The notes under the pieces are model-generated. The model did not search any database, was not told the origin of the DNA, and saw only the letters and a list, made by a program, of their open reading frames with translations. 64,000 nt of DNA from Opeltia flavorubescens (Eukaryota; Ascomycota; Lecanoromycetes; Teloschistales; Teloschistaceae), in NCBI GenBank assembly GCA_000442125.1, contig KE546980.1, forward strand, positions 1,302,001 to 1,366,000, written 5' to 3'. Positions 12,692-62,757 of this stretch are shown piece after piece. Position numbers and translations under genes: made by a program. Position 1 is the stretch's first letter. Each line of letters begins with the position of its first letter.

Positions 12692-15600
12692 ATGTTGACA
12701 AGCTGGATGTTCCTGTTGCTTTGTTCGCTCTCTGCAAGGAGCTCTCCTGAAGGTCAATTAGACACTGGGTGATGGATATGACCGGCACTCGTCGTGAACA
12801 TGTCGAAACAATAACATCACCAGAATTTACCGACACTGCTGCATGTCGCTGTGCTTTTCGACCGGTTGATGAGGAAGCTGGCATCGACTCGGAGAATACT
12901 CAAGCTTGGCGATGTATACGACAGGTCAGACAGGATATCTACAGAGGATCATCTGGGAAATGGTACCTTTCACTTCGTCGAAAAACCCAGCCAGTGGAAG
13001 GTTATTCACTTCCAGATACCACGACTTGGTTCACAGCAAGTCGGGTCGAAGACAGACCGATTCAACTACGCTCACCCGATTCGACTCAACTCGACCCCTT
13101 CGATGAGCAATGCACTGGTCTTTTGGGGAACCAAAAAGAGTCTGTGCTAGACGAGAGCTCCAGATCACTCCTGGTACAAAGACAAGACTCAGATTCCAGC
13201 GAACGACCACCGACGTGTTATGGAGGTTCTCGAGCAGTCGCCATAACCATTCAAAAGCCTGATTCCTGGGAGAAGGAAGGTTGCTTGCCAGGTTTTCTAT
13301 GTGAGTGCATCCCCTTTCCCAAACCAACCTGAAAACTAACACAATGCAATCGTGGGAAGGCCAAAACAATACGATCGACCAGTTGCCTGAATACTGTCCT
13401 CCATTAGTAACCTGCCAAAATGCTAGGCTTTCTGGAGGTGGCTGTCCACCACAAGGCATGCTCGAGCCCGTCGTCTGTCCAAAAGGTTACTATTGTCCAC
13501 ATGGTGGCCGATCCCAGCTCAAATGTCCATCTGGGCATTACTGTTCGCTGGGCGCTTACAAAGCATCACCGTGTAGCCCAGGCGCATCATGTCCGGAAGG
13601 AACAGATAGAAACATGTCTTTCCTACCTCCAGGTCTGATATTGGCTATCGATGTTCTCATTTTGGCGATAATGTTCGGCTTCAGAATACGGAATAATCTT
13701 AAGAACAAGTCAAAAACCAGTTCCAAAAGTACACGTTTCTCGCGTTTCAACAGGACTGCAAGCTTCTTCGACAAGTCTCAGAATTCCAAAAAATATCAGT
13801 CGTTACAGGACGATGACATTGCTCTCGAATCTCGTATTACACATGTCCAACGAACAGATACCGGATTTGGAGGCAATTTTACACCAGTCGAGGGGCCAAG
13901 TGCTGATGATGAGCTCATATCTGATATCGACCTGTTCATCCAGTCAATGTCAAAATGCATTGGGACTGAGAAGTTCGGGCTCTCGTTTGAATTCTCCGAC
14001 CTTAAATTCCAACCAAAGAAAGCAAGCAAACCTATCTTATCCGAGGTTACGGGAAAGATTGATCGGGGTTCACTTTGGGGCGTTATGGGAGCTTCAGGTG
14101 CCGGAAAATCAACATTCGTCAACGTTCTCATGGGCAAGCAAGCGTACACCGGTGGCGTGACAAAGATCAATGGGGTCGCGGGTGATATCAAGAAGTATAA
14201 NAAAATCATTGGATACGTACCTCAAGATGACATTGTCCTGCCGGAGCTTACAGTCCGAGAAAATATCCTGCACTCTGCTCGCATACGCTTACCTTCGAAC
14301 TGGGGAGAGAGTCAAATTCAAAAACATGTCGACACCTTGATCTCATGCCTTCAGCTAGCCCACGTCAAAGACAGTCTCGTTGGCAGCGCTGCGAAACCGG
14401 TCATCTCAGGAGGCCAGCGGAAGCGCGTTAGCATTGGTATTGAATTAGCTGCAGCTCCGATGGCCCTATTCCTCGATGAACCGACAAGTGGCCTTGACGC
14501 CACCTCCGCCTCTTCAATCATGATGACCCTCAAAGAACTCTCACGTCTCAACATCACCGTCATAACAATCATCCACCAACCTCGTACTGAGATCTTCGAA
14601 TCCCTAGATTCCCTCATGCTCTTTGGTAAAGGCCGCGTCATCTACCAAGGTCCCGAACAAGATGTCCAAGCCTATTTCGAAGACCTCGGTTTCCGTTTCC
14701 CCCAATCTGCAAACCCGGCCGATACAATCATGGATATCATCGCCGGACAAGGCCACCTTTACAAACCCGCCGGCGACAGCGGTATTTGGCCCCTCATTCA
14801 CAATTGGAAACGGATGCAAGAATCTAGGACTCCGCGTCCGGATAGCAGTCTCAGCACCCACTCTACGCCATCCCTCGCCCAATTTCCCAATTCCGGTAAC
14901 CCTCGGCACCTCAGTGCAAACAGCATGGCCACTCTCACCAGCAATAACAGCAGCAAAACTCAAAAAACAGCTGAAGCACTCTCCTTACGCCGCAGCATTA
15001 AATCCCGCGGTGCCCCCTTCCATAAGCAAATCTACCACTGTTTCCTCCGCTCCCTTCTCCAACAGTACCGCCTCCGCTCCTCCCTGTTCTTCGAGATTGG
15101 CGTCTCTGCACTCGGAGGCTTCCTAATTGGCCTCGCGCAATTCAAAGCCGAGGGACAGAACTTCCGTGGTTTCTACCACCAACCTTACACCATTCTCTCC
15201 TCCTCCATTGATTATAGCGCCGTTCCGCAAATGGCACTGCTGGTGGGCATAGCCATCGGACTGATTGCGAGCAGTCCTGGCGTTAAGATCTTCGGGGAAG
15301 AGAAGTTGGTGTATTGGCGGGAAGCCAACGCGGGGCATAATCGTCTTGCTTATTACATTGGGAAGGTGTTGAGTACGTTTCCAAGAATGGTACTAGCGTG
15401 TATACACTTCACGGCTACGTTTATGCTCCTCTCTACGCCGAGGATTAGTTGGGCGGAATCTTTCCTCGCGAATCTTCTCTACTTCTATACTATTTACGGT
15501 CTTGCTAGTATCCTCTCTATGCTTACGAGAAGGGAAGATGGCCCGTTACTCGCCGTCATGGCCTCCCTAATCGTCGGTGTGCTCAACGGTATGAGCCCCA

Positions 15601-34375: not shown

Positions 34376-35481
34376 TGATATTCTATGCTGATTTTGTCGT
34401 AGTTATATGTGTATTTGTTTACCGTAGTCTGCATTTTAGTTAAGAAGTACAGGCGAGCAGCTTCCCTGAAAACCAGCCTCGTTGAAATGTATAATTTTAC
34501 AAGGCTGCGAAATCTGCCGAACACTCGTCACACTGGTCTAGAGTATCAAACGCTTACTTGGCATTCCCCTTGGAAACATCATCTGTGTGAGGGCTAAGTG
34601 GGGACTACCGCCGCATTGGTATTAATCGTGTCGAGTTATGCGAATTGAACAGTCCATGTACACGATTTTATGCTTGGATCGCAAAAGATTGAGAAGAGGT
34701 CAAACACTCCGGCTTTCCAACATCAGGGACTTTATGCTAGAACATGAACTCCAAAGCAGCTACTGGGACGTTTGACCCCACAGATTTGAATGGTAGACTT
34801 GATAATGCCTACGAATGGCTTAGTGCATCGGAAGTAGGTTCTTCGGTGAAAATGCCAAGCCTCCAAATTCCCAACTGAAATTAGTCGCGATTTTCCTCGT
34901 CTGCCTGACTCATGATTGCAGCTGAAGCCTGGCTACGTCTCGAGGGCCGTTAAAGTTCTCTAGGTAGCATCCAAGCACCGAAAAGCATGGTTAGTATGGA
35001 ACATGAGCGGTCCTCGGGCAATGCGTTTTGGCTTGGTATTGAATTACGTTCTTGATTGATCGGAATTCCTCGCGACAATTAAAGTACCTTGTCATGAGTC
35101 TCAATCTTTGAGACCTCTGGAGCACAGAGATATTGGAGAAAGAAGGTCTTATTTGATGGGTGGTCCCTACTAGGCTGAAATGCCTTGCTGGAAGCTGCAG
35201 GACCTGTCGTATGAGCTCATCATGCATAATTTCAAGGAAGCCTGGGCAAATCTCGAGGCTGACACACGAAGTATCAATCTCACTTTTGAACGCGCCAAAA
35301 ATCCGTATTTCCCTCAAAATTTATGTCATGGCAGAGAAGTTGTTTCGTGATGTCTTACTAACGTTCTTTTGCTATGGGCGGTGTTCTCTAGTAGTCCTAT
35401 GATCTCAAGTCTCGAGGATTTGAGTTTCTTCTCTAAATCCCGCTTCTATTCGTAAGACTCTCCGTCGTAGGAACATCGTCA
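34376..35481. other. 1.1-kb spacer upstream of the NACHT-ankyrin gene
   Basis: No supported gene. A 108-codon minus-strand frame at 34991-35317 lacks an ATG start and any family motif. Confidence 0.4.
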
Positions 35482-38400
35482 ATGGATATATCAGCCAGCA
35501 TTATTACCTTGATCGGTGCAGTGAATGAGGTTGTCACCATCTGTTACAACTACGTAGCGGCCACTAGAGGTGCACCATGGGCACTCTCAAAGATGATAGA
35601 TGAGCTTAATAACCTTCGACGAGTGCTCGAGTCGATCGAAAGATTTTATAGAGACACGGATGATGACGACCAAGGTACTGCCTCACGCTTAGGGTCTATT
35701 AGGGAGCTTTGTGACGCACAAACTGGTTCGATAGCGAAAGAACTCGATAGTCTCATGCAAAAATTGCGTCACCCAAAATGGGCCGGTCTAGATGGATCAA
35801 AACGACAAGCTATGATGAAAACCTTGACCTGGCCATTGAAAGAAGGCGAAGCAAAAAAGACCTTGCAGAATATCGAACGAATGAAGAGCACCTTGGAGTT
35901 GGCCTTAACAGTCGATCTAATGCAAGTATGATCCACCTCAAAAGTCGGCGAATTCTGAACAAACTATTAGTGAAACCCAGAAAGCAGAGCTTAAGACTCT
36001 GAAGAAGTCCGTCAGATCCTTGCGTGATGGTACGTAAGCTGGCATGTCAGATTCTAACCATACTAAACTACACGGCAGATGATCATTATCAGAGGATATT
36101 GAGATGGCTCTCTGCACCGGATCCCTCTACTAATCTGAATGCTGCTCTCAAAAGAAGGCATACTGGTACTGGGAAGTGGTTGCTAGAGAACCAGATCTAC
36201 AAAAATTGGAAGGCGGCTCGAGGTTCTTTCCTCTGGCTGCATGGGATGCCCGGCTGTGGTATTGCCCAAGATTGTCCAATGAGAACATGCTGAATAAGTA
36301 GCGTCTGACTGCATACAATAGGAAAATCCATTCTTAGCTCAACGATCATAGAAGACCTGCGTCAGGAGATGTCTCAGCCGGATAAGATTGTCATGTACTT
36401 TTATTTTGACTTCAACGACATCTCCAAACAACACGTTGACAAAATGCTGCGTTCTCTGGTAGTTCAACTGTCATGTACATGTCCACATGTTCCGGAGCCA
36501 CTTGCAATTTTGTACAAATCGTGCAACAAGGGCTCTGTGCAACCTTATACAAATGATATTGTGGAAGTTTTACAAGCACTCCTCAAACAATACCATCAAG
36601 TCTATATAGTGCTGGACGCCTTGGATGAGTGCGAAAGCCGATCAGAGCTTCTTGATTGGATGGGACGACTATTCAAGCAAAATTCAGATCGGCTGAGCCT
36701 GATCATAACCAGCAGAAAGATCAAAGATCTAGACGATTTTGTCGCCAAGGAATCTGGACCAGAGAACAGCTTTTCTATTCCAGACCAGAGTGTCAATGAA
36801 GACATCTGTTTGTTTGTTAAAGAAATCCTTCACTCAGATCAAAGATTCAGAAGATGGCATAGACAGCCGGAGGTATTAGAAGAGATTGAAGAGAGGTTGA
36901 TCAACCAAGCGGGGGGAATGTAAGAATACTCACCATCTCTAGTGCATGCTGATGACTTACACATCTTTCATTACACAGGTTTCGTTGGGCAGCTTGCCAG
37001 CTTGACGCGCTGAGTGGTTGTCGAAGCCTTAACAAACTTCGTCGAGCACTCAACTCTTTGCCAATCACACTTGACGAAACGTATGAACGTATCTTATGCA
37101 ATATCGATCCGATCTTCAAGGTGGAAGCTCTTCATGTATTGCAGTGGTTGGTATATGCAATGAGACCACTTACTCTGGTAGAAGTAGCGGAACTTGTTGC
37201 TTTCGACGTTGAGCATGAGCCAAGATTTGACCCTACAAATCGTTTTGCAGATATTGAAGAAGTTCTGGACTTGTGCTCAAGTCTGACGCTCTGTACCATG
37301 TCTGACGGCGCTGGTAATGCCGACAGCTACCAACACAATAATAGCAGTATTCTTAATTCTAAGGGAAGGGTACCGTTCGTTAGGCTTGCCCATTTCTCGG
37401 TCAAGGAGTACCTAACTTCAAACCGTATCGGGCAAGGACCAGCAGCATACTTCAGTGTCGACGAAGAACTATCACATCTAAGGCTTGCAGAAACATGTCT
37501 TTCTTGCCTGCTGCTGTACGAAGATGACCCTCCTATTGGTACAAAGGCGTTTTCAACCAAATTTCCTATCGCTAAATACGCTGCTGAACATTGGCTGAGC
37601 CATTTCAAGAAGGCAAATGGTATACTGAAAGAGCACCATTACGAGTACGCATCAAAACTTTTCTCAGGCGAACATGTAGTACGGAATTGGATAGGTCTTT
37701 ACGATATCGATCGTGAAACCGGCCAGATGCACTCATTCAGAATACCACAAGGATCCACACTCTATTATGCAGTACTCACTGGATCATATGCTCTTGTAGC
37801 GGTCGTCTTACAGAAGTTCAATGACTATGAAAGAGAAAAGACACATGACAATAGACGCTCTACATTTGTGACCGATGATCATCGCTGGGTTCCATGTAGT
37901 CGCTCTGACCAGGCTGCATGCATCAATCAGACCGGAGGATCGTTGCATACTCCTCTAATATTAGCTTCATGGTATGGTTTGCCGAAGATCGTCGAGCTGC
38001 TTCTGACATATGGCGCCAATCCTAACATCTACACACAAGTGATGCTAGACTCCTTGTTTTCTTTTAACGCTACAAGATCCGCACTAGCAGCTGCGGTGCA
38101 TGACGGCAGGATCGACATAGCAAAATGTCTGCTAGATCATGGCGCCGACATCCATGAGGGGTTACCTTGCTCTTTAACGGCAAGCAATCATGCAATCGAC
38201 TATGGCACTGCTTTAAAATATATATGCTTGGACCAAATCGAAGGATTACAAGGGCAGAGAATGCACCAAATATCCAATGACCAAAAAGTTCCTAGACGGA
38301 TCTTTGAAAAGGTGCGGCTCGGCTTGTTATCACGACCCCAATCTCTCGCCGAATTTGATACCGAATCAATCGGGGGATTCTCTGTTCCTCTATTGTTTGA

Positions 38401-38821
38401 AGCTGTACACAACGGTGACATTGATATGGTCAGCCTCCTCCTCGACTACGGCGCCTTGATTGATCACAGGAACGGGTTTCACCGCAATACAGCTCTAATC
38501 GAAGCTGCTGCGCGGGGCAACGACATGATGGTAGAGTTGCTACTGGACAGGGGCGCTTCAATCAACGAGACGGACATTTTCGGGAACACTGCCTTGGCTT
38601 GTGCCTTCAACGCTGGCAAGGGAAGTACAGCTGCCATACTTATGGGAAAAGGAGCTGAATATCCTTGTTGGGCGCTCCCGGTTGGCGACTTCTACGTCGA
38701 TAATACCTGCATAGATGTACTACATCCAGAAAGTGATGAGGAGTGCAACGAGGAAGATCAAGTACTCTCAGGGAGAGGCGGGGTGATGTTCGCAAAAAAT
38801 GTGTCTGTAGCATGGCGTTGA
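35482..38821 (+). CDS. NACHT-ankyrin STAND receptor (fungal NLR-like)
   Basis: Five exons: 35482-35925, 35981-36029, 36079-36258, 36322-36919 and 36979-38821. All joins keep phase, giving 1037 aa. The N-terminal about 165 residues are a helical STAND effector/adaptor region (MDISASIITLIGAVNEVVTI), most like Helo_like_N. NACHT follows: Walker A GMPGCGKS (about 220-227) is split by the third intron, then Walker B YIVLDALDECES and SLIITSRK. The post-NACHT helical/winged-helix region contains LPITLDETYERIL. The C-terminal half holds five to six ankyrin repeats (HTPLILASWYGLPKIVELLL, YGANPNIY, GNTALACAFNAGK). Such proteins act in non-self recognition and programmed cell death. The architecture looks intact. 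Confidence 0.93.
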
Positions 38822-41538: not shown

Positions 41539-42727
41539 ATGAGATGTCTCTCCCTCGCATCCTTGGCGCTTCTCCTCCCTTCAACATGGGCACTCACACT
41601 ACCATCCCCAAATCCCGATCTTAAGCCCACAATCCAGTAAGCCCATCCCACCCTCTCCTTCCAAACCCTTCCACTAACCAACCCTCCCACTTCTGCTCTC
41701 ACATCAAAGCAGATCCCACCACCTAATCAAACCCAAAGACCCCCCAAACTTCAAAGTCCTAATCCACCTCCTCGACCTCGACCCTTCCGCCGCCCTTCCC
41801 CCTACATCCGTCTACCTCGCCTCCATCCCCCTCCTCGCAGACTGGGCCTCTAATGGCTGGACCCACACATATCCGCCCCGCGGCCCTACACAAGGGAAAG
41901 ACGGCTACGGGTTAAGGATAGAATGGCGATGTATCGCCTACGCGAGTGATAAGAACCAACTAGAGACAAGGCATTTAGTGCTGGGGATGTTGCATTTCCT
42001 GAACCAGATGCGCAAGAGTGGGTTTTGGCCGGGGAATGCGGCGGTGTTGGTGGGGAGGGAGGGGGTGGGGTATTTGGAGGTTATGAAGATGAGAGCTGGG
42101 GCGGGTGGGGGGGTTGATGATACTTCCGAAAGCAGTAAACGTAATAGCAGCAGCACTACTCCGTCTTCGCCGGCGCAGAAGGATATGGAGGTTGAGGCTG
42201 CAAGACGTATCCCCGACCCCCTCAACCCCTCCCTAACAATAATCTACACAATCACATCCTCCCGCCCCCTCTCCTGCCCCAACCTCTTCAGCACAATCCT
42301 CTACGCCATCGCCACCGCTGCGCAGGGCGCTAATGACGAACTCTGCCAAGACCTCGCCGGGTATAACGAGCAGAGGGACACGCTCTTCCAGATCCAAGGA
42401 TGGAAAGTTGATTTTTGGAAGCAGGGGTTGGATTATGGATTACTGAGGAGGGGGTTGGTTTTGCTTGCGGAGAGGTTGGGGGAGAGGGTTGCTAGTGGGG
42501 TGGGGTGCGCGGAGGTGGGGTGGAGGTGGGAGTGNNNNNNNNNNNNNNNNNNNNNNNNNNNNNNNNNNNTGGGGGGGTTAGGGGTAGTGATCTTTAGGAG
42601 GAGGAGGGGGGAAGAAGGGGGAAGGGGGATGGGGGGAATATGCCAATTGAAAGGGGTTGTCTGTAGTGTGTGTGGGATTCGAAATCTGAGATTAAGATAT
42701 ATATCTGTTTCCTTAATTGATACCTGA
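41539..42727 (+). CDS. secreted protein of unknown function, interrupted by an assembly gap
   Basis: Exon 1 (41539-41636) encodes a signal peptide, MRCLSLASLALLLPSTWA. A 76-nt intron (GTAAGC...AAGCAG, 41637-41712) joins in phase to an exon that runs into 35 Ns (42535-42569). The 3' end is therefore unsure; the frame is nominally open to 42727 if the gap size is true. Mature sequence includes VLIHLLDLDPSA, a GYGLRIEWRCIAYASDKNQL segment and GMLHFLNQMRKSG, followed by a Ser-rich insert and a helical end. No known family. Strong C-rich to G-rich switching along the coding strand. Confidence 0.7.
42535..42569. other. assembly gap of 35 N
   Basis: Run of N inside the 3' part of the secreted-protein gene, flanked by G-rich sequence on both sides (GGGGTGGGG-like), which may have defeated sequencing. 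True length unknown. Confidence 0.99.
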
Positions 42728-46610: not shown

Positions 46611-47376
46611 TCACCCAGTCGCCAACTTCTTCAAATTGGTCAACGCACCATTGAAGATATCGCTATCACCACCGTAGGTGTAACTATCCGCATTCTGCCA
46701 AATAGTCTGATACGGCCAACCACCAGGAATAGTACCAGGTCCAGAAGAACTATACCTCGCCAAGACGAGTGGACAAGTCGTGTGGAAAGCAGCGCTGTTG
46801 CCCGTGCAGGTGGTCCACCAATCATTGGTGCTGTAGATCATGGGGTACCGAGATGTTTTACTATGGTAAGTGTTGACGAAATCCTGGATCCAGCTGACCA
46901 TGGAGCTCTGCGAAAGCCCGTAGCATGTCGCTCCTGATGGATTGTATTCGATGTCGAGCATGCCGGGGAGTGTGATGCCGTCTCCGGACCAGCCTCCTCC
47001 GTGGGCGATGAAGAAGTTGGCCTGAGTTGCGCCGGAGCCTGAATTTGGATGGGCGAAGTGGTAGCCACCGCGGATCAGGCCCGCAGCTGTTGCGCCGTTG
47101 TAATGCGACGAGAAAGACGGGTCGGTGTACGTAGTACCTTCGGTTGCCTACAGGAGGAGTCTTGATTCAGAAGCTGATGTAGTTCCCAGGGGAGAAAGTT
47201 ACCTTGATAATCACGAAGCGAGCGCCGCTGCTGTATGCTCCCTTGAAATTGACACTCGTTTGGTAGTGGGATATGTCGAAGCCTTGGACGGTGGCACGCT
47301 TCTCGAGGGTATCGGCAGGCGCTGCGAATGTTGTTTGGCATATCGCCAAACTTGCGGCAAGAAAATTGAGCTTCAT
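46611..47376 (-). CDS. secreted GH25 muramidase (Chalaropsis-type lysozyme)
   Basis: N,O-diacetylmuramidase expected to cleave bacterial peptidoglycan. Exon 1 (47203-47376) and exon 2 (46611-47147) are joined in phase 0 by a 55-nt intron (GTAACT...CTGTAG), giving 236 aa. A signal peptide (MKLNFLAASLAICQTTFA) is followed by a short propeptide ending in a KR processing site. The catalytic domain starts GFDISHYQTSVNFKGAY, continues RGGYHFAHPNSGSG, and carries the DxE motif LDIEYNP. The end includes YPMIYSTNDWWTT and WQNADSYTYGGDSDIFNG. All active-site acids are present. I took ATG 47376; another in-frame ATG lies 9 nt upstream. GH25 in fungi is generally regarded as bacterial in origin. Confidence 0.95.
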
Positions 47377-48953: not shown

Positions 48954-51237
48954 ATGGCTGGAAGGCTTGAATTGTATCAATACACGTTGCCGTTGATTGG
49001 TAAGACTGCAGTTGAGCATATTGAACAAGGCTGAGCCCGATATAGCACCAGATGCAATGCTGCTCTGTCTGTTTTGTAGGAAACGTGGTCATGTTGCTGG
49101 ACAGTGTTTGAAAAGACCGATTCATAATGAAGGATCTTCCTGGTTCATTTCTAAAGAACGAAAATCGATGTCATTTGACCAAGGCCTAGAACCACAAAAG
49201 AGATTATGTCGATGATGTAGAGACCTAGATTTGGTCTCATGGCTTGCAAAAAAACCACTCTTCGACCGCCTTGAGGATCTGCGCAAATTGAAAAACGATC
49301 CAAGACTATTCCGAGGACTAGGCCTCGTTAGCAACATTGTTCTGAGGGATGACTGTGGGCTCTGCCGATGCCTCGTCTCAATAATCGATACGCCATATCT
49401 AATGACTCAGGAAGTCCGACTGATATTGTCTTGGTCCATTTTCAGGCTGGACCCAGATATGGTCATAGATACTGATCAGAAGCGAGCCAGTGCTAAGGCT
49501 ATCCATGCCATCCTGGAACCTCCAGAACGTTTCACCGAACCGGACAATTATATTGCTATCGTTTGCGATGGTCTTTGTCTTGCAACACAGCCAGACTTTC
49601 CAGACAAGATATTGAATGCTAGGTCATCCTTTTCTCAGCCTTACTTTCGCAAATTACGAAAGTGGCTCTCGATATGCAAGAGATTACATAATCTTACATG
49701 TAGTATCAAATTGTCGCCATCCCTTGCGTCCATCCTTCTCATTGATGTTAGCGCTCGGCGCATCGTCCCGTTCTCCTCTCGCACTAAGATCTACTTAGCA
49801 TTGAGTTACAAATGGGGCAACGCAAAACCAAATTTCCCTGGTTCCGGGTGTGCTGGTATTGTTCTGGGAAGGCTGTCTAGAACTATCGAAGATTCTATAC
49901 ACTTTGTGAAAGAGTTGGGCCAAAGATATCTCTGGGTTGATGCTGTCTGCATTGATCAAAACGACGAGGCTCAAAAATTGCAACAGATAAGTATCATGAG
50001 CGATATTTACGAAGGCGCCTATGCCACAATCGTCGCCCTTTCTGGTGACTCGGCTGAAGCTGGTCTACCAAAATTTGGGGAAAGCAGAGAATGTTATGAA
50101 CAGGCAAGCTGTTCAGTCAACAGTACGCAGCTGGCGGGATTGGGACCGCCTCTTTTTCCTCTCACGAATTTCCTTCCCTGGGGTCAGAGGTCATGGACTT
50201 ATCAAGAGGCAATATTAAGCACGAGATGTATCTATATTAGCGAATACCCTACTTACTTCGAATACAATGCGACAAGGTTCTGCGAAGTGGTTGATGATGC
50301 GTCATCGGTTGTACAGCTTCCTGACCAAAGATTTTCTCCAATCGAGAACGCCCACTCGATGCTCCGAATCCCTCGGCTAGGGTCTACGGTTTCGGCCAAC
50401 AACAGATTTGATTCATATATGCAGCATGTTGGTGCTTATGTTGGTCGATCTATGACGAATCAATCAGATGCGCTTCATGCCTTTTCTGGAATTCTTCGAT
50501 CCTTAGAGAAGACATCTTATACGAAAGGAATGTTTTGGGCTCTTCCGTGCGAAGATATGAACAAGGCGCTGCTATGGACCCGACTTAAAGGACAACCTAG
50601 GACCGAGAACTTTCCTAAATGGAGTTGGTTAAGCTGGCAAGAGGCAGCGTTCGCCTGGGGACTCCCTGATCTGCATCGTTGTCCATTTGATATTACCATA
50701 TGGAGAAAGTCCTTGTCTGGACTTGAACCCATCTTCCATGAAGCCTACGAAGACATGAAAACTCAACACCGCGAGCTGTTCCCCAAGGACCCTTTCTTGG
50801 AAGCATACTATTTAGAAGATTCGGTTTGCCTTGAAAGAATGACGAATATCAATTACGATTTCGCCGATCAATTAATTTGTGTAGAGAGCTTCACCCTACG
50901 ATTTTCGATCCGAAACTTAGCTTCAGGAAGAATTGATGAACAAGCTTTATGGGCTGATTTCCGTCTAGTCGTAAATGACACTTCCCTCGGCATCCAAATC
51001 AGTAAGCATGATCCTGTCTTAAAACATTTACTTGCAGAAGGAGAACAACTCTTCTTGTTGCTCGAAAGAGGAATAGTGGATCTCACAGATAAATCGGTGT
51101 TCTACCACTTGTTACTACTGAAACCGCTAAATGGCCTTTTCGAACGAGTCACCGCAATTACATTAATGGTACCAAGACGAAGATTATGGGTCTTGAAGTC
51201 GTTGAACCTCGCTCGGAGGAGAGTCATTCTATGTTGA
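48954..51237 (+). CDS. heterokaryon-incompatibility (HET) domain protein
   Basis: The body is one continuous frame to 51237. It has no ATG at its 5' edge (TTG at 49231; first in-frame ATG 49402). An upstream exon 48954-48999 starting MAGRLELYQYTLP, with donor GTAAGA and an acceptor at 49222, joins in phase and gives 686 aa; this is my preferred start but is not certain. The HET domain shows YLALSYKWG, LSRTIEDSIHFVKELGQRYL, WVDAVCIDQND and QISIMSDIYEGAYATIVAL, then LPWGQRSWTYQEAILS. The N-terminal about 200 residues have no known domain. HET proteins mediate allorecognition cell death in ascomycetes. Confidence 0.87.
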
Positions 51238-53418: not shown

Positions 53419-53734
53419 ATAATTGTACCAGCGGAGGTACTGCTGTGTTCTGCGTGGACACAATGGTTTCTTGACCATTGGCAGGTCACGAAATGGGGTT
53501 GTCCAAACACCACCAGATCAAACGTAGAATTGATCATGACGTAGATCTCTGCTTGTTTGCACGTGCTACCCCTGCGCGTTCTGCCAAGCAATCCAAACCG
53601 TGGTAGCGTGTCAATGTCTTGGCACGCACGTCCGAAGTCATCTTGTGAATTGAGTGGCTGATCCCATAAAACACGTGCTTTCGATAGAGAATCGTAGACG
53701 ATGATGTCTCATTGTTGTTGACACTCAAACCAAG

Positions 53735-55204
53735 ATGGTCCCAAGGAAACGGAACGTTGAGTCATCCGACAACTCAGGAGATCTACCCAGAAGACGCAGC
53801 CAGAGGATCAAAACGATAGCCAGTCAAAGAGCCTTCACTTTCAGAAGTCGGACACCGTATCTTCCACCCGAGATCATTAGCCTTGTTGCCGGGTATCTTG
53901 ACAAAGCAGATCTGAAAATCCTCCGGCTGGTTTCAAAAGCATGGTACGGAGCAGTGACGCCTCAGCTGTTCGACCGCGTCTTTGTCTCGCCTCGCACGGT
54001 AGATCTTGACGTGTTCGAGAAAATCACCAGTAACCCTTTCCTTGCAGCATCCGTCAAGGGCCTGATTTATGATGTGTCAACGTTCTTCCGAGACACCCAA
54101 GCCAGCTATCTTAACACATTTTGCTCTCTGACTGGTATTCTTCTTGATAGGTATAACCACAACCCACAAGTCTTTAGGCCTCCTAGGCAAGTCCGGAGAA
54201 TGGTCGACGCTTATCGGCGTCAAGATCCCTATTTGTACCCAAAGTTCGGAAACGATGCAATCGTGACCTCGAGTTATGCGAAATGGCAAAAGCTTGCAGA
54301 GGAAGAGTCCAAACATCTCAATGGTCCCTTTCAAGCTAGCCTCATGCAGGGATTGAGCAAGCTATCAAATCTGCGAGACGTTATAATGGACGACAACATG
54401 TGGGGCCAGGCTTTCCGTCTACTTCCTCCACCTGAATACTCCCATGGAACTGTTTCTTCGTTCACATCACCTCTTCAAGGCTCCCCGCTCCTTCGTCAAT
54501 GGAAACCTTTCCAACCTCTTCCAGCAGTAGTAGCATCAGATGACAAGATGAGCAAATCTGATCATTTTAAGACCTTGGTTGATGCGCTTTTCCAATCGAA
54601 AAGGAACGTCAAGATGTTCCAATTCCTTCCTCTGTCAGGCGAAGGGCTCTCTCACGACAAAGTCTTGACTCACTGTTATGAGAGCAAGGAGTACCCGAGC
54701 CGAATAATGAGCTGTTTCTGGTCGCTCGAGATCCTGGACTTGAAAATTACGCCTTGGGGTCTTCACGGCACTCCCGGGGCACGGAGTAATCCCGTCCTTG
54801 GATTCCTACCTGTTCTCTTAAGCCGTATGACCGGTCTCAAGCGACTCTTCTTGGACTTGACGTCAGCAGAGGATCACATAAACCCGCCTTCGCTTTTCGA
54901 TAGGGTGGAGGCTTGCTTTACGTATGATGACGTCTTTCTGCGAACTGGAAAATGGCCCTGCCTGACGGTACTTCAGCTCACGGGTATTGCTATGAGGTAC
55001 AAAGATCTGGTCTACCTCATCCACCATCAGATTCATGAGCACGCGTGGCTGGAATTGAATAGCATTACTCTACTAGACGGGGATCCCTATGACGTTTCTG
55101 ACATCTTTGAAGGCAAACCTTTCAATTCTATACATTTCGGAGATACCCATACACGGTACAACAGCGGGCAGGAATTGCCGTTTATTGATGTGGATTACCG
55201 CTAA
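53735..55204 (+). CDS. F-box protein
   Basis: Single exon, 489 aa. A basic N-terminus (PRRRSQRIKTIASQR) precedes an F-box at about residues 40-80: YLPPEIISLVAGYLDKADLK, then LRLVSKAWYGAVTPQLFDRV. The rest is a long fungal-type region with leucine-rich hydrophobic periodicity (LKRLFLDLTSAED, WPCLTVLQLTGIA) that may be irregular LRR. Expected to act as an SCF ubiquitin-ligase substrate adaptor; the substrate is unknown. Many fungal F-box genes of this type are lineage-specific. Confidence 0.88.
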   Translation: MVPRKRNVESSDNSGDLPRRRSQRIKTIASQRAFTFRSRTPYLPPEIISLVAGYLDKADLKILRLVSKAWYGAVTPQLFDRVFVSPRTVDLDVFEKITSNPFLAASVKGLIYDVSTFFRDTQASYLNTFCSLTGILLDRYNHNPQVFRPPRQVRRMVDAYRRQDPYLYPKFGNDAIVTSSYAKWQKLAEEESKHLNGPFQASLMQGLSKLSNLRDVIMDDNMWGQAFRLLPPPEYSHGTVSSFTSPLQGSPLLRQWKPFQPLPAVVASDDKMSKSDHFKTLVDALFQSKRNVKMFQFLPLSGEGLSHDKVLTHCYESKEYPSRIMSCFWSLEILDLKITPWGLHGTPGARSNPVLGFLPVLLSRMTGLKRLFLDLTSAEDHINPPSLFDRVEACFTYDDVFLRTGKWPCLTVLQLTGIAMRYKDLVYLIHHQIHEHAWLELNSITLLDGDPYDVSDIFEGKPFNSIHFGDTHTRYNSGQELPFIDVDYR

Positions 55205-56437
55205 TGATATGTTTGCTGGAACGTATTCACGTCGGCCGGCCGGTGCGACACTCCATCGTCGAGTCTGTATCTTGAACCTGGTGCAGTTTGTAAGCATGAA
55301 CTCCAAGAGAATGGTTTTCAATTCTATCGAGGAGGAATCTATATTTTTGGAGGCTTGTTGTCGCCATTCAGGAATTTTGGCTCTAAGCATTGCCAATGTA
55401 ATATGCATGTATCATTCTATTTTCTGCCGAATATCCATCGGGTCTTCTTGTCTATTTATCCGTGTACAAAAGTTTACTACCCGGATTGTCAAATTTCGAG
55501 AAATAAAGATGTCATTCGACCTTTCGAATCCGAATCTTTTTCCGAAATTGTACCTTCCTAGATATCTCTGTTCTCGATAAACCCCATGAATGCGGCACTA
55601 CACGTTCATTGCCTAGGGGCTGTTCATCCCAGGATGCGCGGGACACAATTCCCTTATTCATATAAGTCATATTTGGAGCAAAAAAGGACAATGTGGTACT
55701 ACGACTATGAGGTCTGCTTCAGCGATTTTCAATTTGGCATGTCAAGGAGAGACTAGATGCTTGATATCCCTTGCAAACATTGCGCTAACAAGAGCCAGCG
55801 GTTCAGCGAGGGTTCTGGACCCAAAGCCCTGGAGAACGTAGAGAAATTTTAGTCTCTGAAATCATCTATGGGGAAGCCATCCACATTCGATTTCATTGTG
55901 TGCACTGAGTGGCTAGTTTGCATAGGAATAGATGGTTCGCTTATGTCAAGATACTTTCCCATCTCATGTCTTCATTTGCGCCTCTTCCGTGAGTTCGCTC
56001 GTCTGGACACCAACGAATAGGGCTGATGCAAGAATCCCATATCCTCAGATCACGTACACTTTGTAGATTAGGCAGAGTCGGCGTAGCAGATGTCCAAAAC
56101 GGTACAAGCGGCTTGTCAGCCTTTCGTCCCGCCTTGACCACCACCATTTTCCCTTCCTTCCCCCAGTCATTCTTTCTGTCATTCAGGCGGACATTAAATT
56201 ATCGATAGGATGGTCTAGCTAAGATGCACTGAAAAACAAGCCTACAGCATCTGCACTCCACACTGGCGTAATAGCAGTTTTACAAATGGTTTGTCTATAA
56301 GAAAACGAGGCTGTTGCCGGGCAGTAGCCTCATCATCGGCGACAACGACAGCTATGAGTTAGGAACTTGATCAGAATCTACAGAATCAGGCCATAACTTC
56401 CCTGCCCGTGTTTGCTCTCCGATACATCCTCGTGGAA
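55205..56437. other. 1.2-kb spacer
   Basis: The continuation of the F-box region (55205-55580) is open in another frame but has no protein character. Nothing else is recognisable. Confidence 0.4.
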
Positions 56438-58219
56438 ATGTCGTTCGGTTTCTCACTCGGCGACTTCCTAGCTACTGCGCGTCTCATCAACGACATCATC
56501 GATGCCCTCCGGACCTCATCGATCTCCGAGTTCAATGAGCTGACAGTGGAACTCGAGAAGGTCCAACGCGCTCTTTATGAGATTGAGCATCTGGAGTCGT
56601 CACCTGGGCACGAAGCCGNCATCAATAGCATCAAGATCGCAGCGCTCTTGTGCAAACATCCCTTGGATGAATTTGCCATCAAGCTGAAGAAGTATCAATG
56701 CTTGGGATCAGTCGCTTCATCAAGAAGAGAACAAATGAGGAAGTGGAAGCTGAAACTTCAGTGGGGTTTGACGATGGAGGAAGAGGTTCAGCGGATACGA
56801 ACCATTCTCAGTGCGCACATGGCGAGTCTCAACGTGCGTCTGAGCACTCAAGGACTGTAGGTTGTCGAGGTTGTAGTGTCGTATACACTACCAGTGGCTG
56901 AGACTCATGTGCTTAGAACATCGAATTCAAGTTCTGCCCGCGAAATAGCGGCCATTGACGAGAAAGTAACCCAGTCCCGAGCGGCGATTCTGGATGTCGG
57001 CAGAGACGTACAATCACAGGAACGCTCGATTCAACAAAACAGCTCGTACCTGCAGAGCATTATCCGTATGGTGCAAAAGTATGTTGACCATCTGGACTCC
57101 CACGATCGGATCATGCTGACGCGTGAGTAGCTGCATGTTGCCACAAATGGCTGCTCTCATGGCTATAGCAAATCAGATCTGGGTAACGAATATGCAAATC
57201 ATGAACTTACTCACCCGGCTTCAAGATGCGCGAATTGCGCCTGATACGGGATTTACCTACTTCCAGACGCCCTGCAAATTTGAAGATGCCTTTGGCCGCG
57301 TCATTCCTGTGCCAGCAGAATACGACCTCAAGGTACCTTTTTGTTCCCTTTTTCCTTCACAGAGACTAATGATGGATAGATGTTGAGAGGGATAATATCA
57401 GCCCGCTTCAGCAGTGGACCTGGCTCTACAAAGATGTTGGCTGAAGAGTATGAGGTTTTCGATGCCTCTGATACTTCCCAGGTCTTCTCCGAGTCTGGTT
57501 TGTTTTCATTCGTCCCAGGTATGAAGCTTACAATGGCCTTTGTGATTGGTCGCTACTGTGGCCAAGCACTGGCAGATTGTCCGAGACCTGGATGCAAAGG
57601 CCGAACGTTCAATAAGATGCGCTCTGGAGGTCAGACCTGTTCGATTTGTGGCCTATGGTTTGATATCTCCAAACGCTCGCTGCCAAGGCCTTTTCGATTG
57701 CAATTCACAGAGGATAATTTCCAGAGAATTCGGACGGAGAGGAAGTGGAATAAGAACGTTATCATTCATCCCTTAGATCTAGCTAACTTGACGTTTGATT
57801 CACCCCCGGAATCTTGGATTGAAAAAGGGATCGAACGACTCTCTACTCAATTGATCCCGGACGAAATCAAAGGGACTCGCCGAGAAACACTGCAAGACAA
57901 TGTGGCGTCATCGATCGAAAGCGTCCACGGTGACCCAGACTATCCAGGGAATTTCGAGACTGTGGCTGCACAAGCTATCAAGCAAACATGCGAAGAATTA
58001 TATCTCACCGTTGATGAGCTTAAGAATCTAGCCGCCAATGACTTTGAGCCAGGTACACTCGGGATTGACTCTTTACTATCATTCTCAATCACCTCGCGCC
58101 TGAGAGGACTTGGTATCAATTCACCGAGACCGGGGGACGGATTATATCTGGAATCTTTCGTCAAGGATTTTGTCAATGAGTATTCTTATTGCTTTAAAGA
58201 GATCTCTGATGGAGAATGA
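56438..58219 (+). CDS. ubiquitin-like domain / zinc-site / acyl-carrier-like fusion protein, with one in-frame stop
   Basis: Exons 56438-57122, 57169-57332 and 57380-58219; introns of 46 nt (GTGAGT...CTATAG) and 47 nt (GTACCT...GATAG) join in phase, 562 codons. The N-terminus MSFGFSLGDFLATARLIND and coiled region match fungal STAND-like ULD proteins. A ubiquitin-like domain follows (FEDAFGRVIPVPAEYDLK, ISARFSSGPGST, FVPGMKLTMAFVIG), then a CPRPGC...CSIC zinc site. The last about 85 residues look like a PKS-type acyl carrier: an ELYLTVDELKNL helix, then the phosphopantetheine motif LGIDSLLSFSITSRLRGLGI (Ser about 514). A TAG at 56858 interrupts codon 141 and an N lies at 56619. The stop could be nonsense, an error, or spliced out by a weaker 66-nt intron, 56811-56876. 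Confidence 0.7.
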
Positions 58220-58850
58220 TTGTCAGGTCGGCATACTGACTCAGTCGAAGAATCTGTCAGCAAAGCCTAAATCTATGAATACCTAGGGTAGAACGATGGT
58301 TCATCAGAAGCTATAGGCAGGGTCAATTCTCACGATGGACTTCTACGTGGAATGCTCATCTCTTTGTTGAGATCGAAACATCCATCAAATCATTCGGGGC
58401 TTCCAGGAGAGAATCCAATTCGCTAATTATGGTGTGAAACAACATTGGCTCACGTTAGAACAATCAGCCAATAACAATTCGCATCAGTACATGCCGGCTA
58501 TCTCCACATCATCAATGTTAAGTCGCAATGTGCGAAAGCAAGGAATCAAATTTAGTCACTTGAAATCATCACTAAATCCTCAAATGTCTCTTGCCAATTG
58601 GTGGATCATTCATGCTACACATACTAATGTTCCGAATCAATCTTATCTTTCGAAGCGGGTCAATGCACATCATCGCGTTTGTTCTCTTTATTTTAGGAAC
58701 TGTCGGACCCCACGAATGTTTGTTTATGTACTAAAGTCAATGGGAATCTTTATAATTTTTTCTTCTACATACTTTCTTCTCGCTGGAATCATTCCTTGAA
58801 GATCTACAAATACCTTGTTGTCGTACCAATAGCTATTTCCCACCTTCGCC
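58220..58850. other. 0.6-kb spacer
   Basis: AT-rich, no supported gene; probable promoter of the BTB gene at its 3' side. Confidence 0.4.
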
Positions 58851-59528
58851 ATGGAACTCATTGAAGGTCCGCCCTTATCGGGGCCCAGCGTCTTTGAAAC
58901 CTCCTCGCCAAAATCTTCCAGCCAAGTCATCATCCTCCAAGTCGGAGAGCAGAAATTCTACACAACAAAAGCAACATTGGAAGGATCCAAGATGCTCAAA
59001 GCCATGGTCTCCCATCGCTGGAACGCCAGCAAAGACGGCGAGAAGACATTCTTCCTTGACGCAGACCCCGAAGCCTTCAAACATATCCTTTGCTTCCTCC
59101 GCCACGGCGTCTACCCTCTCTGCTACAACAGTGCCTCAGGTCACGATTACTACCTCTACACTGTCATCTACAAACTTGCAGACTACCTCCAAATCACCGA
59201 ACTAGCCGCCTGGCTGCACGGAAAGAAGTACCTGGAAGCCATCAAAGTCACTACTAGGGCAAGCGTCTCGGAGGGTGAGGACGCTCTATTCGCCACCGAT
59301 GAATCCAATGTCAAGATGCAGTACCATCCGTCATGGAGAATCGTCAAGAAATATGTCTGCCCGAGGGGAATCCGCAACCACTACGATAACCCTCAAGGTT
59401 GTGGGAAGGCGTGTCGGGCCGCCCTGGGGGATGAAGATGATGAGTACGAGGATTGTACTGTGCTGTCGATCTTGTCTGTTGCGGAGAAAGTGTTTTATGA
59501 TCAGAAGCTTTGTACACATGGAGACTGA
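58851..59528 (+). CDS. BTB/POZ (KCTD/T1-like) domain protein
   Basis: Single exon, 225 aa. The BTB fold spans about residues 24-125: VIILQVGEQKFYTTKATLEG, SKMLKAMV, a KTFFLDADPEAFKHILCFLR segment and HGVYPLCYN, then YKLADYLQITELAAWLHGKKY. This is the potassium-channel tetramerisation (T1/KCTD) subtype. The C-terminal part (PSWRIVKKYVCPRGI, GCGKACRAAL) is Cys-containing and acidic and not a known domain. Such proteins are often Cullin-3 adaptors. A diverged inverted copy of the BTB part lies at 61177-61510. Confidence 0.85.
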   Translation: MELIEGPPLSGPSVFETSSPKSSSQVIILQVGEQKFYTTKATLEGSKMLKAMVSHRWNASKDGEKTFFLDADPEAFKHILCFLRHGVYPLCYNSASGHDYYLYTVIYKLADYLQITELAAWLHGKKYLEAIKVTTRASVSEGEDALFATDESNVKMQYHPSWRIVKKYVCPRGIRNHYDNPQGCGKACRAALGDEDDEYEDCTVLSILSVAEKVFYDQKLCTHGD

Positions 59529-61176
59529 GGATTTGGAGACGAGGAGGTCAATTCCTGATGATAAAGAGAAGGACTGGGATCTCGCTATTTCTGATTGACA
59601 AATCATGTTCCACCACTCGATGTGCATGAGAGTAGGACGAGATCTTCAAAGCCTTGGGATTCATCATCATCATTCTGCATTCAGAATTCGAAAATAGACT
59701 TCTTTCCTCTCGTCTTCAGAATCCACTTTACTTTCATTCTTTTCATCAAAGCTCCACTTTCCCCATCACTCATGCAGATGCAATAATCCAAATCCCCAAG
59801 ACCCCATCCACAATATCTTGTACACCCATTTTCTATATCATTTCAGCATCAAACACTTGCATGCTTCAAATTCCACCCCCAAATTCCCTCGAAAATACCT
59901 AAAAGTCTGGAATATATCATTTCACCATTCAAAACAGATATGCACCGACAAACCGCTCAAATCTCAAACCTTGCTCCTGCCCCATCCCCCCATGGAGTAG
60001 ATGAGAAGTTTCTCCAAGTGATGAAAACCGCCAGACATGGAAATGAAAATGTAAGAGGTTATGGCTACTAAATATTCATGGAGGGTTTGGATGGATGATG
60101 GGATTTTTGTGATAAGCGCTTCGTGGAATTCGATAATTACTATCATTCCCAGAAGTTACGATCTCCTATTATATCCTTTCAACATTTTCATGACATGTCG
60201 GCAATGGGAAAGAGTTTCGATTTGATGGAGATGGGTGGTACGTCTTCATCATGCGATGGAAATATAGGGGGATTGTAGTCACGCCGAGTAGTATACTCCG
60301 GAGGAAGCATTGAAGGTGTTAGCTATGATCGGGCTGGATCGACATGGTTTATTTTCCTCTTGCGGAGAAATATCTGTGACTGTAGAAGGGGACTGATTAT
60401 AAGTTTCAGGATAGGATAGAGTGGCGTGGCTACGAAATCATAAGGAGATTGGTAGGAAAGAGATGGGGAGCGTTGATGGAATGGGAGGAGGTAGGGCAGA
60501 GAATGATAGGTGTGATCTTTGAAAGAATTCATTCGTACACCATGTCCAACTCCCATGAGGGGACTGAATTAATGTTGTTCATGAAGATGAGACTACTCCT
60601 CGGCGCACGATACATGTCTCTCCTCGGAGCCGGGGATTTAGCTGTAGTAGTAGTAGTATTTTCAGACGAGCAAGCGGGTGGAAGAGGTGAGTATATGGTC
60701 TAGATCTGGTGAGTACGAGTTGCATGCCTTGTTCGAGGCAGGTTATTTTTCTATATACCCTTTTCCAATTATTTCAGTGTACACGCCTTCTCGTCATAGA
60801 CCACCCTCATAACCATACTCCACCCTTCCCTCTCAACACCAAAGCCGTGAACATCACTTCCTCCACCGTCCTAAAATTGAGGAAACATATCCGGGGGGCC
60901 GTCGAAGCCCGGACAGCCCATACAGTTTTCATCCCTCTGATGATGATCCGGAGAACCTCGAAAGAACAGAGGAAGCTATATCAACTCCACCGCAGTCTTG
61001 AACTCCATCTGAGATATCATCAGTAAAACAGAAACGCCAATACAAATATTCTCGTTCCTTGTACCGTCTGACATGTTTGCATGTAGGGTTGTACTAGATT
61101 TGGGCGTCGGGTGGGTGACGTCGTATAGTGTCGGGGTAGTGGTGTGGTTTTCTTTGAGTGCGGATGTTGCTTGAGA
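59529..61176. other. 1.6-kb spacer between the inverted BTB copies
   Basis: No supported gene. Frames at 60449-61026 have low complexity or no recognisable character. Confidence 0.4.
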
Positions 61177-61510
61177 TTATCTTTGATGGGTTCGAGGTGA
61201 TTTGACCGAGTTCTTGGGGCCGGTTTTGATTAGTCTGTGCATGTATGGATGATTGGGGAGTTGTGGAATGCTGTTGGAGAGGGTGTAAATATGTGTGGCG
61301 GATATTGGATAGCAGAGGGGAGAGACGAGAGTATGGAGGAAGCGGAGGATGGAATCAAGAATTTCTAGAGCCACGTCCGGGTAGCAAACGCGTCCGTCGG
61401 CTGGCTTGTTTTTATTCCATTCCTCGGTTATTAGATGCGTGAGCATGGTCCTACCTGATAGTATTCGTACCATGGTACGAAAGGTCTGATTTTCACTGTG
61501 TAGCACAATA
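61177..61510 (-). pseudogene. diverged BTB domain fragment, inverted paralogue
   Basis: A minus-strand frame aligns without gaps over most of its length to the BTB gene at 58851: IVLHSENQTFRTMVRILSGR against VIILQVGEQKFYTTKATLEG, then MLTHLITEEWNKNKPADGR, EILDSILRFLHTLVSPLCY against the matching KHILCFLRHGVYPLCY. It begins right after an AACAG acceptor-like site and ends after PLCY with unrelated residues and a stop, so the last helix of the fold is missing. Either a broken copy or one exon of a gene with unseen exons. Confidence 0.55.
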
Positions 61511-62757
61511 CTGTTAGAATCTTTACGGGCAAAAGAAGAAGGAAAATTGATTGATACCTATATCAATTATGAGTGATCCTGCTCGGGTTGAAAGACTATA
61601 TCGAGAGTCTGCGATATGGTGAAATATTTGATTGCTTGACTTGTATTTATAACCTTCATATGAGATTGGGAGACGAGGATAGGGAAAGAAAAGGAAAAAA
61701 TATGAATACCACGGCAAGCCTTATATATGGACTTATGAAACGCGAGAGTCGATGAGTCCTATGAACTTCAGATGTTTTTTGGAGAGATATGAAGGTAGAA
61801 AGGAGTGAGGCGAATATATTCCGTCCGTCGGATTTTTTTCCTATCTATCTGCAATATCGTCTCCACCAAGTCGCCATGTATTCTCATTCTATCTCGAAAT
61901 CAAGTCTTGTTCATCACCCCTGAAACTTGTTCTACTTTCTTCCTCTTTGCTCTCATCAGCTCTTCTTCTGACCACATGTGATATTAAAGAAGGTATCGTT
62001 AATTTTCTTAATTTGTTTTTTCTTTGGCTGATATTTGATACCTAGATCGTTGCTTTGGAGCAAAGACCGCCAAAATAATGGGACTAGCTGGATCTTGGTA
62101 TATGGCAGCAGTTTCATCGAGAGCCGATTCTGCTACGTTAGGATTGATATCGTCTACATCCTGTATTAAAGCATGATTTGATTCGGTTAAACTAGTCACA
62201 GATGTGCCTAGGAGCCTTACTAACATACATATGTAAAGTACCCCAAAGTATAGTATATTCCTACTCCGTGCCCCTTGCGGTACGAACCAGGCACAGGATG
62301 ACATCTGGTGAGACTCGTCTTGTAGATCAATACGCATAGGAATTAAAGTAGAAGCTAGAGCACAGGTGGCCGAACCGGTCAAAGCTTTGATTGGTGCGCC
62401 TATGTAAGTTTCTCAGGAGCCGTGGCCCCCACATGTCGACCTCTCGAATTACCCAATCAAAACCTATGCTATGACGTCGGCGTTCCTTCCCGTCTGCAAG
62501 TACATCAATCCGCCCGTGCTGATCATCCATTTGGGGAGGGTGACGCACTTGACGTCTCAACTACGCTGTATTGCAATCAATCTTCTTCCATTCTTTACTC
62601 CTCTACTACCTTCATACCGCTCAATGTGCTCTCATGCGTCGTGAGTACATCTCCAATTTCATGTCGCCTCTTTGAACAGATAATGCATGGTGCATGAGCG
62701 ATTGATGGCCGTTCAATCGCTTCGTCCTTTGCTTTCTCCTTCAACTGAATCCGCTCG
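61511..62757. other. 1.2-kb spacer
   Basis: No supported gene. The 124-codon minus-strand frame at 62008-62382 has no family motif I can name. Confidence 0.4.

What the first reader, a model, noticed from the sequence alone, without database searches (positions are those of the whole stretch)
56438..58219. Ubiquitin-like domain, zinc site and acyl-carrier domain in one protein
Seen: one continuous exon (57380-58219) contains the end of a ubiquitin-like domain, a CxxxxC...CxxC site and a C-terminal segment with LGIDSLLSFSITSRLR, matching the phosphopantetheine-attachment motif and helix pattern of PKS acyl carriers. Known: carrier domains normally sit in PKS, NRPS or fatty-acid synthases; fungal ULD proteins resemble STAND adaptors. 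Inference: a carrier attached to a ubiquitin-like/zinc module could tether an acyl or aminoacyl group to a signalling protein, a combination I do not know from the literature.
Basis: partly seen in the sequence, partly recalled or inferred. Interest (0 to 1): 0.9.

Follow-up and report, generated by a model that had tools for sequence, protein, structure and literature searches.

The report
Ubiquitin-like fungal protein with carrier-like tail
A fungal protein with a ubiquitin-like domain and a likely zinc site ends in a diverged piece that resembles the carrier domain of polyketide-making enzymes, including the serine that holds the cofactor arm, but whether that piece still works as a carrier is not shown.

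Summary
The gene model holds: four exons, 542 residues, with a ubiquitin-like domain (Pfam ULD_2, 1e-07), a C-x4-C...C-x2-C site and, in the same uninterrupted last exon, a C-terminal tail with GIDSLLSFSITSRLR (Ser494, not about 514).

The tail looks derived from the carrier (ACP) of fungal non-reducing polyketide synthases. Against the PDB, exon 4's only hit below E 0.2 is the CTB1 ACP (0.0065). A two-ACP profile ranks exon 4 first of 888 window ORFs (4.4e-6; next 1.7); the 60 shown of that profile's 98 PDB matches are all carriers by name.

The likeness is partial: helix II strongly, helix I weakly, helices III-IV not at all. Pfam PP-binding does not hit at E up to 10, whereas two genuine ACPs of this type give 3.3e-13 and 4.8e-15. 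AlphaFold models without an alignment are too poor to decide the fold.

No relative was found, and no fungal collection could be searched, so conservation is untested. I read it as a carrier-derived module fused to a fungal ULD/zinc protein, more likely a docking or bait surface than a working carrier.

The parts
56438..56856 (+). Exon 1: N-terminal helical domain (residues 1-139); one ambiguous base N at 56619 gives an unknown residue 61
   Evidence: open frame from an ATG, donor GTAGGT; no Pfam family above cut-off here; likeness to fungal STAND N-terminal domains, and 'helical', are recalled or judged by eye, not tested
56917..57122 (+). Exon 2: linker (about residues 140-208); an alternative in-phase donor at 57079 with acceptor at 57130 is possible
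57169..57332 (+). Exon 3: start of the ubiquitin-like domain (ULD_2 begins at residue 242)
57380..58219 (+). Exon 4: end of ULD_2 (to residue 319), zinc-type site, linker and carrier-like tail, one uninterrupted frame
57578..57649 (+). Putative zinc site CPRPGC ... CSIC (residues 330-353)
   Evidence: read directly; no Pfam family matched above cut-off
57932..58189 (+). Carrier-like (ACP-like) domain, residues 448-533
   Evidence: phmmer against PDB: CTB1 ACP E 0.0036; NR-PKS ACP HMM E 4.4e-6; hhalign probability 93%; no Pfam PP-binding match
57959..58021 (+). Helix I-like stretch TVAAQAIKQTCEELYLTVDEL, 10 of 21 identical to the CTB1 ACP
58061..58105 (+). Helix II-like motif GIDSLLSFSITSRLR, 11 of 15 identical to CTB1 and 10 of 15 to PksA
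58070..58072 (+). Codon of Ser494, the candidate phosphopantetheine attachment site

Best explanation
It is a fungal ULD/zinc protein that has gained, at its C-terminus, a carrier domain descended from the ACP of a non-reducing polyketide synthase. Shown: one open exon for ULD end, Cys pairs and tail; a sequence match to NR-PKS ACPs over helices I and II with the attachment serine kept; no match over helices III-IV. Inferred: the tail works mainly as a protein-docking or bait surface. Its ACP-like helix II would be recognised by a partner that normally binds such carriers (a PKS catalytic domain or the cell's phosphopantetheinyl transferase), and the ULD/zinc part would pass the contact on to a signalling or regulatory partner. 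Phosphopantetheine on Ser494 is possible; loading with an acyl chain is less likely.
For: Exon 4 against PDB: best hit CTB1 ACP, E 0.0065; the next of the 3 hits up to E 1 is an erythroid transcription factor at 0.24. Tail alone: CTB1 ACP 0.0036, next 0.31. NR-PKS ACP HMM: exon 4 first of 888 ORFs, 22.4 bits, E 4.4e-6; next 4.4 bits, E 1.7. The same two sequences as a profile against 177,635 PDB sequences: 98 matches up to E 10, of which the best 60 are shown and are all carriers or carrier-bearing enzymes by name, down to 15.2 bits; 38 were not shown. With that HMM, full shuffles reaching the tail's score: 0 of 3000; shuffles of only the part before the motif: 15 of 3000, so helix I adds to the match. 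Pairwise against CTB1: 70, best of 3000 shuffles 52; against PksA 48, reached by 4 of 3000. hhalign to four PDB ACPs: probability 93%, against 0.1% for the neighbouring linker as control. Tail codon score 0.082: 76 of 177 windows from other window genes score at or below it, 22 of 1218 intergenic windows at or above it. Helices in the tail model at 4-7, 20-35, 39-47, 57-71, 81-95 and 97-104; the serine is residue 59 of that model, near the start of 57-71; low confidence.
Against: No Pfam PP-binding match at E up to 10, where CTB1 and PksA ACPs score 4.8e-15 and 3.3e-13. No NCBIfam match at E up to 1. With the 15-residue motif kept and the rest shuffled, 628 of 3000 (four-ACP HMM) and 61 of 3000 (NR-PKS HMM) score as high as the real tail; four genuine ACPs, each left out of its own HMM, gave 0 of 3000. 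An HMM of the 4hkg and CurA carriers gives the tail only 4.4 bits, reached by 10 of 3000 full shuffles; pairwise against these two the real score is reached by 99 and 163 of 3000 shuffles. The loop phenylalanine that all four reference ACPs share is proline here. AlphaFold models are poor (pLDDT 35 and 53); none of the 50 printed of 63 Foldseek matches is a carrier and none reaches E 0.001. No PKS gene was seen among the 20 of 76 ORFs of 130 aa or more that I scanned with Pfam. The docking/bait role has no direct evidence.
Confidence: 0.45

Rival explanations
1. The tail is a working carrier: Ser494 receives 4'-phosphopantetheine from the cell's transferase and is loaded with an acyl, polyketide or aminoacyl group, so that a signalling-type protein carries a thioester.
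For: Serine, Asp-Ser-Leu context and helix II are kept (11 of 15 identical to CTB1), and helix I is weakly kept.
Against: Helices III-IV show no likeness (1729 of 3000 downstream shuffles score as high); no Pfam PP-binding; no PKS, NRPS or adenylating gene among the 20 window ORFs scanned with Pfam.
Confidence: 0.2
2. The match is chance: the tail is an ordinary helical C-terminal extension of a fungal ULD/zinc protein in which one 15-residue helix happens to resemble ACP helix II.
For: Most of the score sits in the 15-residue motif (18.7 bits with it, -0.4 with it masked; 1102 of 5000 motif-kept shuffles score as high). Pfam finds nothing. The whole scan may have covered many windows, so a rare match was more likely to be picked.
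Against: Closest to the carriers of fungal NR-PKS, the group expected in a fungus; the helix I region adds (15 of 3000; 15 of 10000 in a pairwise test with CTB1 without the motif); the 60 shown of 98 PDB matches of the profile are carriers.
Confidence: 0.2
3. The tail is a decaying leftover of a PKS gene piece captured at the end of the ULD gene, translated but without function.
For: The last third has no likeness left and one loop residue shared by the four reference ACPs is replaced.
Against: The frame is open to the end with codon use like other window genes, and the attachment motif is the best kept part, which decay does not predict.
Confidence: 0.15

Closest known systems
ACP domain of fungal non-reducing polyketide synthases (CTB1 ACP, PDB 6fik; PksA ACP, PDB 2kr5)
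   Same: Attachment serine in G-x-D-S-L; 11 of 15 (CTB1) and 10 of 15 (PksA) identical residues over helix II; 10 of 21 over helix I with CTB1
   Different: Four-residue insertion before the loop, loop Phe replaced by Pro, no likeness in helices III-IV, no Pfam PP-binding hit; not inside a PKS
Fungal proteins with Pfam ULD_2 (PF22893) ubiquitin-like domain
   Same: ULD_2 at residues 242-319, 32.5 bits against a cut-off of 24.5; the Cys-pair site after it is, from memory, usual in this family
   Different: Carrier-like C-terminal tail; I could not search fungal proteomes to see how many members have it
Integrated-decoy domains of fungal NLRs (Sordariales survey, PMC12258605, passages read)
   Same: Extra domains on receptor-type fungal proteins, most of them found in only one to three NLRs, some proposed as bait or sensor
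   Different: This protein has no nucleotide-binding domain in Pfam, so it is not an NLR; 'acyl carrier' and 'phosphopantetheine' do not occur in that paper's main text (its supplements were not seen)

Membership tests
Phosphopantetheine carrier (PF00550, PP-binding) | Match to the family profile above its cut-off | tested here: not met
   no match at E up to 10 for two cuts of the tail; CTB1 and PksA ACPs match at 4.8e-15 and 3.3e-13
Phosphopantetheine carrier (PF00550, PP-binding) | Serine in G-x-D-S-[LI] at the start of helix II | tested here: met
   GIDSL, Ser494; that a helix starts there rests on a low-confidence model
Phosphopantetheine carrier (PF00550, PP-binding) | Four-helix carrier fold | tested here: inconclusive
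   single-sequence model, pLDDT 53; no carrier among the 50 printed of 63 matches
Phosphopantetheine carrier (PF00550, PP-binding) | 4'-phosphopantetheine on the serine | not testable with these tools
   needs mass spectrometry
NR-PKS-type ACP | Closer to NR-PKS ACPs than to other carriers | tested here: met
   CTB1 ACP is the only PDB hit below E 0.2; tail: NR-PKS HMM 24.6 bits, HMM of the 4hkg and CurA carriers 4.4 bits
NR-PKS-type ACP | Sequence likeness over all helices | tested here: not met
   helix I and II only; downstream part gives no signal
NR-PKS-type ACP | Lies within a polyketide synthase | tested here: not met
   same exon as the end of ULD_2; no PKS among the 20 of 76 window ORFs scanned with Pfam
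ULD_2 (PF22893) | Match above the curated cut-off | tested here: met
   1e-07, 32.5 bits, cut-off 24.5
Fungal NLR/STAND | NACHT or NB-ARC nucleotide-binding domain | tested here: not met
   none in Pfam scan of the spliced protein at E up to 1

The most novel reading that the evidence does not exclude
A holo-carrier on a ubiquitin-like/zinc signalling protein: the fungus loads a thioester onto Ser494, so that the state of its polyketide or acyl metabolism is displayed on, or sensed by, a non-enzymatic protein.
Probability: 0.2. Interest if true: 0.85.

Novelty: new variant of a known kind. Interest (0 to 1): 0.5.

Why it matters
Carrier domains are nearly always parts of assembly-line or fatty-acid enzymes, or small free proteins that serve them (general knowledge). 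A carrier-derived module on a ULD/zinc protein would give a physical link between secondary metabolism and a signalling-type protein in fungi. It would also be a simple test case, one serine and one cofactor, for whether such fused domains act as carriers or as bait.

Tried and rejected
Own-genome search: no genome is held for this window. Relatives: none of 4 pattern-matching stretches in viral contigs, no match in plasmids at E up to 1, none of 72 pattern-matching stretches in genome contigs. Within the window no second copy was seen for exon 1 or exon 2 (best other ORFs 0.59 and 0.35); the printout for exons 3-4 was cut off by my script. A repeat search of 55200-59600 found only one two-copy 21-nt family and two imperfect inverted pairs.

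Structure: the exon 4 model (pLDDT 35) and the tail model (53) are too poor; Foldseek on the tail gave only weak matches. The second aligner was not available.

Other families: PHROGs gave nothing for the tail and one match at E 0.42 for the ULD end/Cys region; NCBIfam gave nothing. Sub-cut-off Pfam matches of the whole protein (WecG-type transferase 0.013, DUF16 0.15, Bestrophin_2 0.16) and of the Cys region (Amnionless 0.042) I take as chance. The linker between Cys site and tail matched only a glycoside hydrolase at E 0.15, so I do not claim that it also comes from a PKS.

Rejected: that the tail is a separate gene. There is no stop and no in-frame ATG between codon 80 of exon 4 and its end. 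A consensus scan found no intron in exon 4, but it recovered only 1 of the 3 introns that I call elsewhere in the gene, so it is weak. In the codon score the Cys-site stretch (57548-57700) does not favour its frame (-0.082 against -0.010 for another); the ULD end, linker and tail do.

Correction made on the way: my first test of the part before the motif included two residues of the CTB1 construct that are probably tag; I repeated it without them (15 of 10000 shuffles score as high, against 2 of 5000 before; a shorter CTB1 piece gave 450 of 10000). The PksA part gave no signal there (1750 of 5000). The part after the motif gave none with either (4605 and 1561 of 5000). One search ended in an error in its last step, which was repeated.

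Full report
What is there. The gene lies on the + strand with exons 56438-56856, 56917-57122, 57169-57332 and 57380-58219 and gives 542 residues. All three introns have GT...AG ends and join in phase. Intron 2 has a possible in-phase alternative (donor 57079, acceptor 57130; one search lists it, the phase I worked out by hand), which does not touch exon 4. One base is N (56619). Pfam finds ULD_2 at residues 242-319 (1e-07, above its cut-off) and nothing else above cut-off. After it come CPRPGC (330-335) and CSIC (350-353), a linker, and a tail with GIDSLLSFSITSRLR at 491-505.

One protein. Exon 4 is open from its acceptor to the stop at 58219, with no in-frame ATG after codon 80 of the exon, so the tail cannot start on its own without a further exon. 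Codon use of the tail in its frame (0.082) is like that of other genes in the window: 76 of 177 coding windows score at or below it and 22 of 1218 intergenic windows at or above it. The coding set (12 ORFs) and the intergenic stretches were chosen by me, and windows overlap. There is no transcript evidence.

Is the tail a carrier? By Pfam, no: no PP-binding match at E up to 10 for two cuts of the tail, while the ACPs of CTB1 and PksA reach 4.8e-15 and 3.3e-13. By closer relatives, it resembles one. Exon 4 against all PDB sequences has CTB1's ACP as best hit (E 0.0065), the tail alone likewise (0.0036). A profile of the CTB1 and PksA ACPs scores exon 4 at 22.4 bits, E 4.4e-6 among 888 ORFs, next 4.4 bits; one of four PDB ACPs gives 16.8 bits, E 2.7e-4, next 0.73. 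The two-ACP profile against PDB gives 98 matches up to E 10; the best 60, all that are shown, are carriers or carrier-bearing enzymes by name, and the 60th has 15.2 bits. So 22 bits is a score that, in that list, only carriers reach. hhalign against four PDB ACPs gives probability 93% for the tail and 0.1% for the linker next to it. Against the two non-fungal carriers alone (4hkg, CurA) the tail is weak: 4.4 bits, and 99 and 163 of 3000 shuffles do as well pairwise.

Where the likeness sits. Helix II carries most of it: 11 of 15 residues identical to CTB1 and 10 of 15 to PksA. Masking it removes the signal from the four-ACP HMM (18.7 to -0.4 bits), and 1102 of 5000 shuffles that keep it score as high. 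With the NR-PKS HMM the part before it matters: shuffling only that part reaches the real score in 15 of 3000 cases, shuffling only the part after it in 1729 of 3000. Four genuine ACPs, each tested against an HMM without itself, gave 0 of 3000 for motif-kept shuffles. Of the five positions up to the serine that are invariant in the four reference ACPs, four are kept and the loop Phe is Pro; the two later ones (T58, L62) have no secure counterpart. So the tail is either a strongly diverged carrier or, less likely, a helix that resembles one. That the finding was picked by a reader over an unknown number of windows makes chance somewhat more likely than the E-values say.

Fold. Two AlphaFold jobs without an alignment gave pLDDT 35 for exon 4 and 53 for the tail. 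The longer helices of the tail model fit a carrier in order and place the serine near the start of a helix, but the model is too weak; Foldseek gave no match below E 0.001, and none of the 50 printed of 63 is a carrier. The fold is undecided.

Relatives and setting. No relative was found in viral, plasmid or prokaryote collections, as expected for a fungal gene; no fungal collection was at hand. I scanned with Pfam 20 of the 76 window ORFs of 130 aa or more: they include NACHT and ankyrin-repeat frames of an NLR-type gene (35.4-38.8 kb), a P450, a HET-domain gene, an F-box gene and a BTB gene next door, and no PKS or NRPS.

Literature. In ten searches of the open-access library no listed title or start of abstract describes a carrier domain on a ULD or NLR-type fungal protein. 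Only the top rows were listed where many papers matched (15 of 1,626, 15 of 17, 15 of 69, 12 of 142), and the library lacks most subscription papers. I read passages only, of PMC9815663, PMC12258605 and PMC4835503. [quoted passage not shown] A passage of the third lists PP-binding among the families counted in its differentially expressed gene sets and says that 8 of 17 expressed PKS genes are up in all three non-self conditions. Both give a setting in which a carrier-like bait is thinkable; no passage I saw describes one.

How it most likely works. I commit to carrier descent (about 80%) with a docking or bait role as the most likely use (45%), because the kept part is the helix that partners of ACPs bind and that carries the serine (established knowledge of ACPs, recalled, not tested here), while the rest of the carrier sequence is changed. 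A working holo-carrier is about one in five, a decaying remnant about one in seven, chance one in five. The serine should be tested first, because one mass spectrum separates the working carrier from the others.

Noticed in passing
35437-38818: Neighbouring frames of an NLR-type gene: PigL_N-like (0.00014, below the family cut-off), NPHP3_N/NACHT, and ankyrin repeats. From memory PigL_N is named after a gene of a pigment PKS cluster.
   Followed up: no
49216-51234 and 53705-55201: HET-domain gene and F-box gene upstream of the finding: self/non-self and ubiquitin-type genes in the neighbourhood.
   Followed up: no
58833-59525 and about 61177-61557 (- strand): A BTB gene right after the finding; a second, short BTB-like frame lies about 2 kb on, judged by eye only.
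   Followed up: no
46614-47147 (- strand): Glycosyl hydrolase family 25 (lysozyme-type) domain, 4.3e-35.
   Followed up: no
42535-42569: Run of 35 N, probably an assembly gap; single N also at 14201, 34057, 48787 and 56619.
   Followed up: no
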